Position numbers and translations under genes: made by a program. The notes under the pieces were generated by a model. The model did not search any database, was not told the origin of the DNA, and saw only the letters and a program-made list of their open reading frames with translations. Of a DNA stretch of 64,000 nt, positions 3,765 through 59,385 are shown one piece after another. Origin of the DNA: Halorussus caseinilyticus (GTDB lineage: Archaea; Halobacteriota; Halobacteria; Halobacteriales; Haladaptataceae); contig NZ_CP119809.1 in assembly GCF_029338395.1 (NCBI RefSeq), positions 2,232,001 through 2,296,000 of the forward strand. Direction: 5' to 3'. Within the stretch, counting starts at the first letter, position 1. Each line of letters starts with the position of its first letter.

Positions 3765-4005
3765 CTAGCTTCAGGCTTGAACCAATCAGGACCGCACCGC
3801 CCCGCACCGCGACCGGGGGCCTCACGCCTCCCCAACCGACTGCGCGTCTCGGTCGTCACTCCCTCCGGTCGTTCCTCCCTGCGATGCTCGTCCCCTCGCG
3901 CGACGATGGCGCGCCACGGAGGGCGCGCCAGCGCGCGCCGACTGTCGGAGACGAAACCAGTGCGCGCCAACTGTCGGAGGCTTCACCGAGCGCCGAAGCC
4001 GGAGG
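3765..4005 (-). repeat. Dispersed repeat R1, copy b (inverted)
   Basis: Fills the gap 3714-4052 upstream of the JAMM gene. Shares AGCTTCAGGCTTGAACCAAT, CCTCCCCAACCGACTGCGCG and the GGCGCGCCACGGAGGGCGCG block with copies a (inverted) and d (59.2 kb). A short internal duplication (CTGTCGGAG and GCTTCACCGA repeats) follows at 3945-4015. Confidence 0.65.
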
Positions 4006-5197: not shown

Positions 5198-6580
5198 ATG
5201 TCACGGGGGACGAAACGGGGGACGCGGGTCGCCCTCGCGCTGGCGGTCCTGCTCGCGCTCGCGAGCGCGACCCCGGCGGTGGGAACCGCGACGATTGACG
5301 ACCGCCCGGCGACCCAGACGACTACCGAACAACAGACCACCGAGCAACAGACCACCGAGGCGGACGGCGACCAGTCCGACGACGAGTCGAGCGACCAGTC
5401 GGTCGCAATCGAGACCGAGGGGTTCGACCCGGACTACGACCCGGCCACGGTGCTGAACCGAGTCGAGAAACTCCGGGGACGCTCGGCGTTGCAGGGCATC
5501 ACGCTCCACGAGTACGACGACGAGGCGGGCGAACCCTACGACGTGCGCGACGAGTTCGCGGCCATCCGACCCGCGGGTGCCGAGACGCTCCAGTTGTACT
5601 CGAACGCCTCGACCGAGCGCCGCCAACCGCTGGGCTACACCGTCGAGCGACAGGCCGCGGTCCACATCTACCTGCTGAACGACTCGGACCTCGAAGACTA
5701 CGGCGTCTCCCAAGAGGTGGTGTTGGCCCACGAGTTCGTCCACGCGCTTCAGTTCCAGCACGAACTGCTGACGCCCTCGCGCACCCAGTTCCGGTCGCAG
5801 TTCCCGCGCTGGACGACCGACTCCCGACTCGTGACCACCGCGATGGTCGAAGGTGACGCCATGTGGGTCACCGAGCAGTACGTCAGGCGCTACGGCGACG
5901 GAGACTACTCGGTCACGGAGTACAACCGGACGCTGGCGCGGGCGGCGTGGCCCCACAGCGTCGCCGGGACGCCCTACTACTACGGCTACGAGTTCTACGA
6001 GGCGGCCGGGAGTTCGCCCGCCGAGCGGTCCGCCGCAATCGAGGGACCGCCCAACTCGACGGCCGAACTGCTCCACCCGACCGAACCGAGGGCGAACGTC
6101 CCGGTCCCCGACGCCCCAGAGATTCCGGACTCCGAGAAACTGACGCGCTATCACACCGACACCGTGGGCGAGTTGGTCATCCGCCACTCGCTCCGGATGA
6201 ACGGCCTGTCGTTCCAGCGTGCGGCCGACGCCGCCGACGGGTGGGCCGCCGACCGGATGTACTACTACGCCGCCGCGGGCGCGGCGGGACCGGCGACTCA
6301 CTGGGTGACGGCGTGGGAAGACGAGCGCGAGGCCCGCGAGTTCGCCGCCGCGTGGCGGTCGATGCTGGACGCTCGCGGCGCGCGCTCGGCCGGTGACACC
6401 GTGTTCGTCCCGGCGAGCGACCACGCGTCCGGCATCCACTACGTCGTCTCCCGCGAGGGCGCGACGGTCCGAATCACGGCGGCGGAGATGGCCGACACCG
6501 CCGAGCGACTCGCCGCGGTGACGGATTCCGCGGCGTCGTCCGAGGACGACGCCGCGGAACCGAACGAGAGCGACCCTTAG
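5198..6580 (+). CDS. Secreted Hvo_1808-type surface protein with HExxH motif
   Basis: 460 aa from the ATG at 5198, chosen because it gives a clean signal peptide (RTK-rich n-region, then VALALAVLLALASATPAVG). A Thr/Gln/Glu-rich linker (about 35-65) precedes the globular domain. HEFVHALQFQHE near residues 184-195 is an HExxH zinc-protease-like motif, in the sequence style of the haloarchaeal Hvo_1808 surface family. The acidic C-terminal tail lacks a PGF-CTERM anchor, so release or another anchor is expected. Protease activity is an inference from the motif alone. Its last 4 bp overlap the convergent pspA-like gene. Confidence 0.75.
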   Translation: MSRGTKRGTRVALALAVLLALASATPAVGTATIDDRPATQTTTEQQTTEQQTTEADGDQSDDESSDQSVAIETEGFDPDYDPATVLNRVEKLRGRSALQGITLHEYDDEAGEPYDVRDEFAAIRPAGAETLQLYSNASTERRQPLGYTVERQAAVHIYLLNDSDLEDYGVSQEVVLAHEFVHALQFQHELLTPSRTQFRSQFPRWTTDSRLVTTAMVEGDAMWVTEQYVRRYGDGDYSVTEYNRTLARAAWPHSVAGTPYYYGYEFYEAAGSSPAERSAAIEGPPNSTAELLHPTEPRANVPVPDAPEIPDSEKLTRYHTDTVGELVIRHSLRMNGLSFQRAADAADGWAADRMYYYAAAGAAGPATHWVTAWEDEREAREFAAAWRSMLDARGARSAGDTVFVPASDHASGIHYVVSREGATVRITAAEMADTAERLAAVTDSAASSEDDAAEPNESDP

Positions 6581-7398
6581 CTCTCGTCGTCGTCTTTGAG
6601 TTCCTCTAACTCGGCTTCGATGTCCTCGTCCGCGGTCTCGGTCTCGACTTCGGTTTCGAGGTCCGCGGGTTCGGCCTCGGTTTCGTCGGAGTCGGCCGAC
6701 CCCTTGCCCATCTCGGCTTTCAGGGTTTCGAGTTCGGCGTCCACTTCACCGGAGGTCCGGACCTCTTCGAGTTCGCGGTCGAGGCTGTCCTTGTCCGAGA
6801 GCGCGTCCTCGAAGACGCCCGTGTCCTGCAACTCGTCCATCGCTTCGGCGCGGGCCTCCATGTCCTCGGTGCGCTCCTCGGCGCGTTCGATTGCCCGGCC
6901 AACGTCCTCCATCTCGTCGCCAGCGCCGGTCATGGCCTCCGAGACCCGGCTCTGGGCTTCGGCGGCCTCGTAGCGGGCTTTCATGCTCTCCTTTTTGGTC
7001 CGGAACTCCTCGATGCGGTTCTGGAGTTCGTCTTTCTTCTCGACGAGGTTGTCTTGGGTGTTCTGGAGGCTGGCGATTTGGCCTTCGAGGTCCTCGATTT
7101 GGTTCATCTTCTGCTTTTTCTTCTCCAGCGCGCGCCGCGCGAGGTCCTCTCGGTCCTGATTGACGGCTTCGCGGGCCTGCTCGTTGTGCTTCTCGACGTT
7201 CTCTTCGAGTTTGCGCTTCTGCATTTCGAGGCGCTTTTTCTGGGTGGTCAGGTCCGCGATACCCTGTTTGACCTCCTGCAACTCGTCGCGCATCTGCTCG
7301 TAGGAGTAATCGAGCGTCTCCGAGGGGTCCTCGGCCCGATTGAGGGCGGCGTTTATCTTCGACCGAACGACGTACGACAGGCGTGAAAGTACTCCCAT
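6577..7398 (-). CDS. pspA: PspA/IM30 (Vipp1)-family membrane-stress protein
   Basis: 273 aa. Family role: peripheral membrane protein that polymerises on damaged membranes. The N-terminus (MGVLSRLSYVVRSKINAALN) is the usual amphipathic membrane-binding helix. It is followed by the typical NRAEDPSETLDYSYEQM segment and about 170 residues of continuous charged coiled coil with Gln/Glu/Lys heptads. The last 60 residues are very acidic, a haloarchaeal tail not needed for the fold. The 3' end overlaps the convergent surface-protein gene by 4 bp. Confidence 0.88.
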   Translation of the reverse strand: MGVLSRLSYVVRSKINAALNRAEDPSETLDYSYEQMRDELQEVKQGIADLTTQKKRLEMQKRKLEENVEKHNEQAREAVNQDREDLARRALEKKKQKMNQIEDLEGQIASLQNTQDNLVEKKDELQNRIEEFRTKKESMKARYEAAEAQSRVSEAMTGAGDEMEDVGRAIERAEERTEDMEARAEAMDELQDTGVFEDALSDKDSLDRELEEVRTSGEVDAELETLKAEMGKGSADSDETEAEPADLETEVETETADEDIEAELEELKDDDES

Positions 7399-7498
7399 AC
7401 CCCCTCTTTCGTGACCTGACCCTTAAAATCCTCACCTCCCCTACAGTCGTCAGACGCTCGTCGGAGGATAGTTTACCTCGGCGCAGGCGTGTCCGCCC

Positions 7499-7697
7499 CC
7501 GGACGCGCTCGGCCGACCAACCACCGGGAGGGATAAAGGGGCCGCGCGCTCGCGGGTCGCAGACCCGTGGTCGTCTCAGCGACCCCTCTCGGAGGTGAGC
7601 GAAGCGAACCGGAGAGATGTCGCTGAGCGACCGCGAGCGGGCGGGGGCTTTCGAGGCATTCGTCGTCGTGGCCTCCGCGGTCACGTAGCGGTCGGCT
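7499..7697 (-). repeat. Structured dispersed repeat R2, copy A
   Basis: Occupies most of the gene-free gap 7399-7760. On the minus strand it reads GAAAGCCCCCGCCCGCTCGC (outer-stem 5' arm), then an inner hairpin at 7569-7632, then a GGCCCCTTTATCCCTCCC 3' arm, and ends in TTGGTCGGCCGAGCG. Inner stem arms are CTCAGCGAC and GTCGCTGAG with ACATCTC on the 5' side and a lone A before CGACC. Copies B and D have different but equally complementary arms. See findings. Confidence 0.75.
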
Positions 7698-7760
7698 TCG
7701 ACAGAAACCGTACCGACAAATCGACCTCACAGACAGAACAGCGGACGAACGGAACCGACG

Positions 7761-8111
7761 TTACTGCGGTTCGGCAGTCTCGGCTTCCTGTTTCTCGACC
7801 GTAATCGCAACGTCCTCGGGGTCGATGCCGATGCGGGCGAACTGCGTCCGAATGTGTTCGCGGGCGGCACCGGTCGCCTGCTCGCGGGTGTCGAACCCGC
7901 GGGGCATCGGCGACTCGAAGGCGACGTTGACCTCCTCGCCGTCCACCTTCTGGACGGTGCCGCCGCTCTCAACCTGATAGAACTCGTCGCAGACCCACAC
8001 GTAGGGGGCGTCCTCGTCGGGTGCGCCCTTGAACCGCGGCGCTCGCTCCCCTCGCTCGTACAGCGTGCCGGTGAGCGTAGTGCCCCCTGCTTCGCCACGG
8101 ATGAGTAGCAT
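7761..8111 (-). CDS. Conserved haloarchaeal hypothetical protein (DUF7113-like)
   Basis: 116 aa from the ATG at 8109-8111. The much longer open frame upstream is antisense to the HerA gene. MLLIRGEAGGTTLTGTLYERGERAPRFKGAP is followed by a small beta-rich domain with YVWVCDEFYQVESGG, and a C-terminal helix with AREHIRTQFARIGIDPED. No signal or membrane segment. Divergent from the HerA-like ATPase, a pairing that may be functional. Function unknown. Confidence 0.7.
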   Translation of the reverse strand: MLLIRGEAGGTTLTGTLYERGERAPRFKGAPDEDAPYVWVCDEFYQVESGGTVQKVDGEEVNVAFESPMPRGFDTREQATGAAREHIRTQFARIGIDPEDVAITVEKQEAETAEPQ

Positions 8112-18290: not shown

Positions 18291-18353
18291 GCCCGTTCGT
18301 TGGGAGAGAATCCGGATAAGCGTTGCAAATCGTCGGTCCGGGCGCGAGAGAAC

Positions 18354-18407
18354 GAAATATATTGCTTTTAGAATGAAATCGAAGTTCCTCAGAATTAAAT
18401 ATATTTC
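18354..18407. promoter_or_regulatory. 10-bp inverted AT-rich repeat upstream of the hydrolase gene
   Basis: GAAATATATT (18354-18363) and its exact reverse complement AATATATTTC (18398-18407) are separated by 34 bp, in the 127-bp gap between phoU and the hydrolase start. Candidate promoter/operator, unproven. Confidence 0.4.
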
Positions 18408-18417
18408 TTCGACGGCC

Positions 18418-29160: not shown

Positions 29161-29234
29161 TGGGTTTGGGCAGATTTGAACTGCCGACCTCCTCCATGTC
29201 AAGGAGGTGTCATAACCAACTAGACCACAAACCC
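29161..29234 (-). tRNA. tRNA-Val (anticodon GAC)
   Basis: 74 nt on the minus strand. Acceptor GGGTTTG pairs with CAAACCC (29162-29168); discriminator A. Anticodon stem CCTCC/GGAGG encloses loop TTGACAT, anticodon GAC. T-arm GGCAG-TTCAAAT-CTGCC. D-arm with GGTCTAGTTGGTTATGACACC. No intron and no encoded CCA. Confidence 0.95.
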
Positions 29235-42084: not shown

Positions 42085-42375
42085 GTCGCGGAAACCGTAG
42101 CGACGACGAACGTCTCGAAAGCCCCCGCCCGCTCGCCACCGGCAGACGTTCCTGCTCGCTTCGCTGTGCGGGCGTGCGACTTCCGAGGTCTGCGTCGCTT
42201 CGCTCCGCAGACGGTCGCTGGCCGACATATCCTCGCTCACTGCGTTCGCTCGGATAGGGGTCGGCCAGACGACCAAGCGGTGCGCGAGCGGGCGGCCCCT
42301 TTACCCCACCCGTGGCGGCTGGTCGGCCGAGCGTTCGCTGGTGGTTGGTTCGGCCGGGCGCGTCCGGGCGGATTG
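42085..42375 (+). repeat. Structured dispersed repeat R2, copy B (longest)
   Basis: Fills most of the gene-free gap 41978-42475. Outer stem 5' arm GAAAGCCCCCGCCCGCTCG at 42117-42135 pairs with CGAGCGGGCGGCCCC near 42283-42297. A variable arm follows (42136-42211), then an inner hairpin at 42213-42274: GGTCGCTGGCCGACATATCC on the 5' side and GGGGTCGGCCAGACGACC on the 3' side. Ends CTTTACCCCACCC and CTGGTCGGCCGAGCG. An AT-rich stretch just upstream (42000-42050) could be its promoter. Confidence 0.78.
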
Positions 42376-47864: not shown

Positions 47865-47995
47865 CGGACGCGCCCGGCCGACCAATCGACAGGGTGAGAT
47901 AAAGGGGCCGCCCGGTCGCGTGACCGCGACCGGGCGGGGGCTTTCTGGGACTTCTTCCCGACGATTCCGGCGGTAGCTGTCACGAGACGAGGCGA
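47865..47995 (-). repeat. Structured dispersed repeat R2, copy C (minimal)
   Basis: Lies in the gene-free gap 47725-48074. On the minus strand, GCCCCCGCCCGGTCGCG pairs with CGCGACCGGGCGGCCCC around a GTCA loop (47902-47941 on +), followed by CTTTATCTCACCC and TTGGTCGGCCGGGCG. It lacks the inner hairpin of the other copies. An AT-rich stretch (47775-47820) fills the rest of the gap. Confidence 0.72.
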
Positions 47996-59084: not shown

Positions 59085-59240
59085 GGCAGAGGATTCGGGG
59101 GTGAACGCCTCTGAAGCCCCCGCCCGGTCGCGGTCGCTGGCCGACATATCCGCGCCTCTCCGCACCGCCCGGCGCGGATAGGGGTCGGCCAGACGACCAC
59201 GCCTTCGGCGCGACCGGGCGGCCCCTTCATCCACCCGAAC
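59085..59240 (+). repeat. Structured dispersed repeat R2, copy D
   Basis: In the gap 59005-59470 between the two moeA genes. AAGCCCCCGCCCGGTCGCG (5' outer arm, 59114-59132) and CGCGACCGGGCGGCCCC (3' arm). Inner hairpin 59132-59198 has the same arms as copy B. Joins directly to repeat R1 copy d at its 3' end. Confidence 0.75.
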
Positions 59241-59385
59241 CGCACCGCGACCGCGGGCCACGGGCCTCCCCAACCGACTGCGCGTCTCGGCCTCCGCTTC
59301 GCTCCGGCCTACGATGCTCGTCCCTCGCGCGGGGAGGGCGCGGCGCACGAGAGCGCCGCGCCAGCGCGCGCCGACCGCAGAGCAA
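59236..59385 (-). repeat. Dispersed repeat R1, copy d
   Basis: Shares ACCGCACCGCGACCGCGGGC, CCTCCCCAACCGACTGCGCG and the ATGCTCGTCCCTCGCGCG block with copy b (3.8 kb). It begins where R2 copy D ends, so the two families are physically joined. Confidence 0.6.

What the first reader, a model, noticed from the sequence alone, without database searches (positions are those of the whole stretch)
7499..7697. R2 copy A keeps the fold but not the sequence of the inner stem
At 7569-7632 the inner stem is CTCAGCGAC/GTCGCTGAG, fully paired though three of nine pairs differ from copies B and D. The flanking GGTCG/CGACC stem and bulges are unchanged. This is the key evidence for structural rather than sequence constraint. 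The 3' outer arm has one mismatch (GAGCGCGCGG), suggesting a tolerated G-G pair or decay.
Basis: seen in the sequence. Interest (0 to 1): 0.7.

Follow-up and report, generated by a model that had tools for sequence, protein, structure and literature searches.

The report
Dispersed folding repeat in haloarchaeal genomes
The sequence is one of about a hundred copies of an unannotated, roughly 120-base folding repeat scattered between genes in a salt-loving archaeon and its relatives; the fold is kept while the letters are swapped, which suggests a selected DNA (or RNA) structure rather than random debris.

Summary
Copy A is real. Its core is at 7531-7651 and its inner stem at 7569-7632 pairs as described. 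It belongs to a dispersed family: 109 covariance-model matches in this Halorussus genome, 0-143 per genome across 18 Halorussus genomes, and matches in 75 of 243 genomes of the order. A wider 196-genome sample gave 6 matching genomes, all inside the order. Nothing matches Rfam here.

The fold is preserved across copies: 98.1% of cells paired, 13 of 40 pairs changed on both sides. Its imperfections persist too, which argues against simple arm-to-arm repair. At shared sites cores usually differ as much as random copies, so whole cores seem to be exchanged; covariation is not stepwise evidence. Where a core was inherited unswapped it changes far less than its flanks (3 of 238 against 74 of 396 aligned positions), so sequence is constrained as well.

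Best reading: a REP/SMR-like non-coding palindromic repeat whose + strand folds as single-stranded DNA (C-GNA-G loops), spread and homogenised by copying between loci, partly under selection. A structured RNA is not excluded. No handling enzyme was found; IS200-type transposase is absent here.

The parts
7531..7651 (+). Copy A, whole core of the element (model R1 positions 1-121)
   Evidence: R1 match G000:C1:2239531-2239651, 134.3 bits; sequence
7499..7530 (+). 5' flank: one unit of the Halorussus ~26-bp repeat (CGCTCGGCCGACCAACC..) and GGGAGG before the core
   Evidence: G-rich GGGTGG-like motif conserved just upstream of the core
7535..7538 (+). P0 5' strand AAAG (pairs with 7648-7651 CTTT); ends of the inverted repeat
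7542..7553 (+). P1 outer stem, 5' arm CCGCGCGCTCGC; G7546 opposes G7640
7554..7566 (+). P2 hairpin GGGTC-GCA-GACCC (C-GNA-G triloop); optional in the family
7569..7583 (+). P3 5' strand: GGTCG, bulged T at 7574, CTCAGCGAC
7584..7618 (+). Internal loop (CCC / T7618), P4 and apical hairpin GGT-GA-GC-GAA-GC-GA-ACC with tandem GA pairs and GNA loop
   Evidence: GA pairing read from sequence
7619..7632 (+). P3 3' strand: GTCGCTGAG + CGACC
7633..7644 (+). P1 outer stem, 3' arm GCGAGCGGGCGG (family consensus)
7645..7651 (+). GGG internal loop and CTTT end
42118..42306 (-). Second copy, with an extra hairpin module between P3 and the P1 3' arm
   Evidence: R1 match 42197-42306, full extent read
47897..47944 (+). 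Short copy: outer stem only
   Evidence: R1 match, 44.1 bits; sequence
59113..59232 (-). Copy with inner stem CTGGCCGAC/GTCGGCCAG
   Evidence: R1 match, 99.9 bits; sequence

Best explanation
Copy A is one copy of a non-coding, extragenic, imperfectly palindromic repeat family of the haloarchaeal order. The unit is a ~110-200 nt core closed by AAAG...CTTT inverted ends. Its + strand folds into an outer stem, an optional GNA-loop hairpin and a long arm with a fixed bulge and internal loop. Shown: about 100 copies in this genome, intergenic placement, large copy-number differences between congeners, presence/absence at shared sites, cores identical at unrelated loci with identity ending at the core edges, a persistent fold with persistent imperfections, and slower change of inherited cores than of their flanks. 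Inferred: the folded + strand acts as single-stranded DNA (exposed in replication or as a cruciform) that a hairpin-recognising enzyme handles, and copies are spread and homogenised by copying of one core over another, probably break-induced gene conversion between copies. The enzyme is unknown.
For: 109 R1 matches in G000; 0-143 per genome in the genus; 89 of 90 copies examined lie between called genes. Identical cores at unrelated loci, with identity ending at the core edges; <=2-edit pairs are 4 of 33 pairs under 15 kb apart but 1 of 3543 more distant same-replicon pairs. Element present in G002 and missing in G016 with a gap of element size. G016's core at the L166 site is 7 edits from a copy elsewhere in G000 but 26 from its ortholog in G002. 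Bulge kept in 131 of 133 cores, single T in the internal loop in 127 of 133. The + strand folds better than the - strand in 130 of 133 (RNA parameters) and 115 against 14 (DNA parameters). Terminal loop C-GNA-G in 59 of 88 and 21 of 45 cores; GNA loops with G-C stems are described as extraordinarily stable DNA mini-hairpins (PMC4686876, passages). DNA-type events: spacer inversion in L265 and a bulge filled by A in L182. Inherited cores: 3 of 238 against 74 of 396 changed positions. AT-rich promoter-like 8-mer in the 60 nt upstream of 3% of 133 cores, against 25% of 40 gene upstream regions and 8.9% of random stretches.
Against: No handling enzyme was found and Y1 transposase is absent from this genome. 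No target duplication or precise insertion point could be read. GNA loops and tandem GA pairs also occur in RNA; stem wobbles lean to G-T over A-C (54:32, p = 0.023; by distinct kinds 25:16), which favours RNA on the + strand, if anything. No orientation clustering along the chromosome (runs z = -0.69), so no sign of replication-strand preference. The constraint evidence rests on two inherited pairs from one genome pair.
Confidence: 0.5

Rival explanations
1. A structured RNA family: the + strand is transcribed (alone or in leaders) and the RNA fold works as a regulator, an sRNA or a protein-binding RNA.
For: Strand-specific fold, conserved internal loops, paired changes, G-T over A-C wobbles. 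The 3' end faces a gene start in 58 of 88 copies (p = 0.0037).
Against: No promoter-like AT-rich stretch upstream; no Rfam match; loops are GNA triloops, with no GNRA tetraloop in the terminal-loop tally; orientation to neighbours is only mildly biased (+E+ 33, -E- 18); copy number 0-143 between congeners is odd for an RNA gene.
Confidence: 0.22
2. A non-autonomous transposon of a known haloarchaeal kind (MITE, PATE or SMR), mobilised in trans.
For: Inverted ends, ~110-130 nt, about 100 copies, presence/absence between relatives; on plasmids too. SMR-A elements of Haloquadratum are ~110 bp with prominent inverted ends and no target duplication (PMC3119063, passages).
Against: No target duplication seen; no Y1 transposase in G000 and no relation of Y1 count to copy number by eye; orthologous sites and orientation are often kept (24 of 29 pairs) while the core changes, which is not what fresh insertion gives; the fold is far richer than terminal repeats need.
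Confidence: 0.17
3. No selected function: palindromes arise and are kept symmetric by template switching and gene conversion alone.
For: Template switching can create and maintain paired changes (PMC8794818, abstract and passages); L182 shows a bulge filled by the templated base and L265 an inverted spacer; copies are lost wholesale in G006 and G008.
Against: Symmetric repair would erase the bulge, the CNC/T loop and the GGG/GGG loop, yet these persist in most of 133 cores. Inherited cores evolve much more slowly than their flanks. Tandem GA and GNA features are strand-specific.
Confidence: 0.11

Closest known systems
SMR-A small mobile repeats of Haloquadratum walsbyi (PMC3119063)
   Same: About 110 bp, prominent inverted ends, tens of copies per genome, no transposase, intergenic mobile repeat of a haloarchaeon (passages read).
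   Different: SMR-A are very uniform within a type and target palindromes of PATEs/IS605 elements; here copies diverge strongly, sit in ordinary gene gaps and keep a complex multi-stem fold. Their letters were not available to compare.
REP / BIME / REPIN extragenic palindromes of bacteria (GTAG and CGTC superfamilies, PMC3733652)
   Same: Extragenic, palindromic, high copy, compensated stem variants, pairs in inverted arrangement.
   Different: REPs are 20-40 bp single hairpins with an unpaired GTAG or CGTC tag; this is ~120 nt, multi-stem, with a GA(C)TGAAAG-type end and no RAYT in this genome.
PATEs and IS605-type elements
   Same: Imperfect hairpins with an extrahelical base as possible recognition signals (the extrahelical-base feature of IS608 is recalled).
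   Different: PATEs have no terminal inverted repeats; this element has them, and Y1 transposase is absent from G000.

Membership tests
REP (GTAG/CGTC) | 20-40 bp palindrome with unpaired GTAG or CGTC tag | tested here: not met
   Core 121 model positions, multi-stem; conserved ends are GGGTGG-GA(T/CTG)AAAG and CTTTCGAGG
REP (GTAG/CGTC) | Extragenic, many copies | tested here: met
   89 of 90 copies intergenic; 109 matches
REP (GTAG) | RAYT/Y1 transposase in the genome | tested here: not met
   PF01797: 0 matches in G000; 10 of 18 genus genomes have it, without relation to copy number
MITE | Terminal inverted repeats | tested here: met
   AAAG(3 mismatches)CCGCCCGCTCGC arms
MITE | Target-site duplication and ends shared with a transposon | tested here: inconclusive
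   No duplication legible at the G002/G016 empty site because the near flanks are diverged; no search for transposons with these ends was made
PATE | No terminal inverted repeats, near-terminal palindromes related to IS605 | tested here: not met
   Has terminal inverted repeats; Y1 absent
SMR-A | ~110 bp, prominent inverted ends, no target duplication | tested here: inconclusive
   Size and ends fit; absence of duplication not established
SMR-A | Inserts into palindromes of PATEs/IS605 elements | not tested
   Flanks were not screened for TnpB/IS605 remnants
Rfam RNA family | Covariance-model match | tested here: not met
   Whole window at gathering: only a tRNA at 29161-29234; 7399-7760 at E<=5: none

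The most novel reading that the evidence does not exclude
A haloarchaea-wide system in which a folded single-stranded DNA module, handled by an unidentified hairpin-specific enzyme, is kept at fixed intergenic sites and in fixed orientation under selection while its sequence is replaced wholesale by cores from other loci: a dispersed set of structure-addressed cassettes.
Probability: 0.25. Interest if true: 0.85.

Novelty: new variant of a known kind. Interest (0 to 1): 0.6.

Why it matters
A multi-stem element occurs about 100 times in one archaeal chromosome and in 24 of 77 sampled genera of its order, yet the literature searches made here returned no description of it, and none is annotated at the three plasmid hits inspected. 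If selected, it points to an unknown structure-reading protein or RNA in haloarchaea. It also shows how covariation between dispersed copies can be produced by block exchange, a trap for RNA-discovery pipelines.

Tried and rejected
Rejected or weakened: (1) IS200/REP-RAYT mobilisation: no Y1_Tnp in G000 and no relation of Y1 counts to copy number by eye. (2) Carriage by viruses: two pattern scans of viral contigs fetched 72 stretches, none with an R1 match. (3) A known RNA: Rfam negative. (4) A replication-strand effect: no orientation clustering over 103 chromosomal copies. (5) Recombination between two elements as the cause of the inversion beside copy A: the other breakpoint region (18291-18417) shows no element by eye. 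(6) Energy support for special DNA triloops: the DNA parameter set at hand gave no bonus to GNA loops, so that point rests on loop counts and the cited paper. (7) Motif letters as search terms in papers gave only unrelated hits (listing only).

Limits: R1 was built from 24 of the 30 blastn loci. Dropped: L003, L015 and L024, which my pattern missed, and L012, L022 and L028, which carry inserts or exceed 150 nt. 90 of the 109 G000 matches were read in detail. In one search at most 14 candidates per genome were scored, so those copy numbers are floors. Five rows were dropped from the wobble test, as were P2 and the first P3a pair. In one search, 31 pairs were listed and 2 lacked an extracted core; pairs share members, so they are not independent. 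Gene calls are from my own codon-usage script. At the L166 site the near 5' flank of G002/G016 is also diverged (44% over 88 positions), so the replaced tract there may be larger than the core.

Full report
WHAT IS THERE. The window is from a Halorussus genome: its PspA matches named Halorussus at 83-94% (best eight records) and all 18 genomes of the genus sample. Copy A lies in the gap between the PspA gene (6577-7398, minus) and a DUF7113 gene (7761-8111, minus); both names are Pfam hits. The core is 7531-7651. The one slip concerns the outer stem: the 3' arm GAGCGGGCGG is the family consensus and the odd base is G7546 in the 5' arm.

A LARGE FAMILY. A blastn search of the genome found 52 pieces, among them 40 long matches. 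A covariance model (R1) made from 24 of the 30 fetched copies finds 109 matches at E <= 0.01. Counts at E <= 0.001 in the genus run from 0 (G008) and 1 (G006) to 143 (G011). In the order, 75 of 243 genomes and 24 of 77 genera have at least one match. In a sample of the phylum, 6 of 196 genomes match, all in the same order, which also serves as a negative control for the model. Seven plasmid records of Halorussus, Haladaptatus, Haloarcula and strain DL31 hold partial matches; the three inspected are unannotated gene gaps.

ANATOMY. The + strand reads GGGTGG-GA(T/CTG)AAAG-GGG-[P1 5' arm]-[P2 hairpin, optional]-GGTCG-Y-[inner stem]-CNC-[P4 and apical hairpin]-T-[inner stem']-CGACC-[P1 3' arm]-GGG-CTTT-CGAGG. 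Sequence conservation falls off within about 10 nt of either end in other genera. In Halorussus the core is usually preceded by ~26-bp tandem units (CGCTCGGCCGACCAACC...) and often followed by ~66-bp units that repeat the P1 3' arm. Some copies carry further hairpin modules, as at 42118-42306, and some are reduced to the outer stem, as at 47897-47944.

THE FOLD IS KEPT, IMPERFECTIONS INCLUDED. On 24 copies, 98.1% of cells pair, 13 of 40 pairs have changes on both sides (shuffled mean 6.1) and the covariation score is 0.169 against 0.059; the slid controls fall to 37-46% paired. On 133 distinct cores (88 from G000, 45 from other genomes) the inner stem has 33 different 5' sequences; 104 are 9/9 Watson-Crick, 25 are 8/9, 3 are 7/9 and 1 fails. 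The bulge between P3a and P3b is present in 131 of 133 (T 99, C 26, G 6). The single unpaired T opposite the CNC loop is present in 127, and GGG faces GGG in about 117. Symmetric copying of one arm onto the other would remove these features.

WHICH STRAND, WHICH POLYMER. The + strand folds better than the - strand in 130 of 133 cores with RNA parameters and in 115 against 14 with DNA parameters. Terminal loops are C-GNA-G in 59 of 88 G000 cores and 21 of 45 others. P2 loops, where my pattern recognised one, are mostly GNA (33 of 36 and 21 of 26), and no GNRA tetraloop appears in the terminal-loop tally. Many apical stems read as alternating Watson-Crick and tandem GA pairs, for example CC-GA-GC-GA-AC-GCA-GT-GA-GC-GA-GG (read). 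GNA loops closed by G-C pairs are known as extraordinarily stable DNA mini-hairpins (PMC4686876, passages). Only 3% of 133 cores have a promoter-like AT-rich 8-mer in the 60 nt upstream, against 25% of 40 gene upstream regions and 8.9% of random stretches. Against this, stem wobbles are G-T 54 and A-C 32 (p = 0.023, but copies are related; by distinct kinds 25 and 16), which leans to RNA on the + strand. I favour single-stranded DNA, without excluding RNA.

PLACEMENT. 89 of 90 G000 copies lie between called genes. Orientation is mixed (+E+ 33, -E+ 25, -E- 18, +E- 12). The 3' end faces a gene start in 58 of 88 (p = 0.0037), and same-direction against opposite-direction copies are 33 and 18 (p = 0.049).

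HOW IT EVOLVES. (a) Copies come and go: the element is present at one site in G002 and missing in G016 with a gap of element size; at another site G002 has an additional inverted copy. At the pspA gap R1 matches a full-length copy in 4 of 18 genomes and a short one in a fifth. (b) Copies at unrelated loci can be identical with identity ending at the core edges: three within 7.1 kb and two 8.4 kb apart. Pairs with at most 2 edits are 4 of 33 pairs closer than 15 kb and 1 of 3543 farther ones. (c) Sites and orientation persist: at the L166 site the element stands in the same orientation in 8 of 18 genomes, and 24 of 29 computed shared-site pairs agree in orientation. (d) The cores at shared sites are mostly as different as random pairs (15-41 edits for most, random 30.5 +- 8.0). 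G016's core at the L166 site is 7 edits from a copy at another locus in G000 but 26 from its ortholog. So cores appear to be replaced as blocks, probably by conversion between copies. A genome-specific variant fits this: cores beginning ATAAAG are 47 of 88 in G000, 6 of 32 in other Halorussus and 0 of 13 in other genera. (e) Where a core was inherited without swapping it hardly changes. L177/L182 (G002/G016) differ by one inserted base over 123 nt, with flanks at 85% and 78%, and the next most similar copy in those genomes is 78% identical. L414/L416 differ at 3 of 115, with flanks at 84% and 79%. Pooled: 3 of 238 against 74 of 396, Fisher p = 3.5e-13. This is the best evidence for selection, but it is two sites in one genome pair.

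The fold is conserved and the would-refute result was not seen. But covariation between dispersed copies is not in itself decisive, because blocks are exchanged and because template switching can create paired changes (PMC8794818, abstract and passages). Footprints of such DNA-level events exist: in L182 an A is inserted opposite the bulged T, and in L265 the inner hairpin is inverted between perfect arms. The argument for constraint rests on the persistent imperfections and on the slow change of inherited cores.

LIKELY WORKING. Shown: a strand-specific fold, dispersal, block exchange, slow change when inherited. Inferred: the + strand fold forms in single-stranded DNA, attracts a structure-specific enzyme or repair, and copies act as donors for one another. 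Whether the host gains anything is open; wholesale absence in G006 and G008 shows that the element is dispensable for a species.

COMPARISON. Nearest in kind are the SMR-A repeats of Haloquadratum (PMC3119063, passages) and bacterial REP/BIME repeats (PMC3733652, passages). REP membership fails on size, tag and RAYT; PATE membership fails on inverted ends and Y1; SMR-A and MITE membership are undecided because no target duplication could be read. A 2025 survey of REPs in bacteria and archaea does not mention 'Halo' or 'halophil' anywhere in its text (PMC12306157, term search). Searches gave no paper on this element among the listings seen; subscription papers are not in that library.

Noticed in passing
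window 7457-7760 and 18328: Relative to G002, G006 and G016, where an alpha/beta-hydrolase gene is divergent from pspA, this genome has that gene at 17.7-18.3 kb in inverted orientation; one breakpoint of the rearrangement is in the gap that holds copy A.
   Followed up: partly
window 59235-59290 and 3797-3852: Another dispersed repeat (CCGCACCGCGACCG...CCTCCCCAACCGACTGCG), 89% between two places, stands directly 5' of the copy at 59113-59232; similar GGTTGGGGAGG stretches occur beside elements in other genomes.
   Followed up: no
G000 copies such as L009, L011, L019 (3' side): Long runs of CGACTC and CGACGACAGAGAC-type tandem repeats follow many elements.
   Followed up: no
L265:1501-1622: Copy whose inner hairpin is inverted between perfect P3 arms, detected on both strands by the model.
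   Followed up: partly
L229, L233, L048 and L243, L260-L264: Shared extra hairpin modules (..GCGAGCGAAGCGAG.. and CCTCGGAAGTCGC..) sit in place of P2 or after P3, as if modules were exchanged too.
   Followed up: partly
G006 and G008: Halorussus genomes with 1 and 0 R1 matches while congeners have 6-143; G006 has the PspA closest to this genome (96%).
   Followed up: no
G002: Its contig C1 has the length (3,588,463) of Halorussus aquaticus XZYJ18 NZ_CP100400.1, so it is probably that genome.
   Followed up: no
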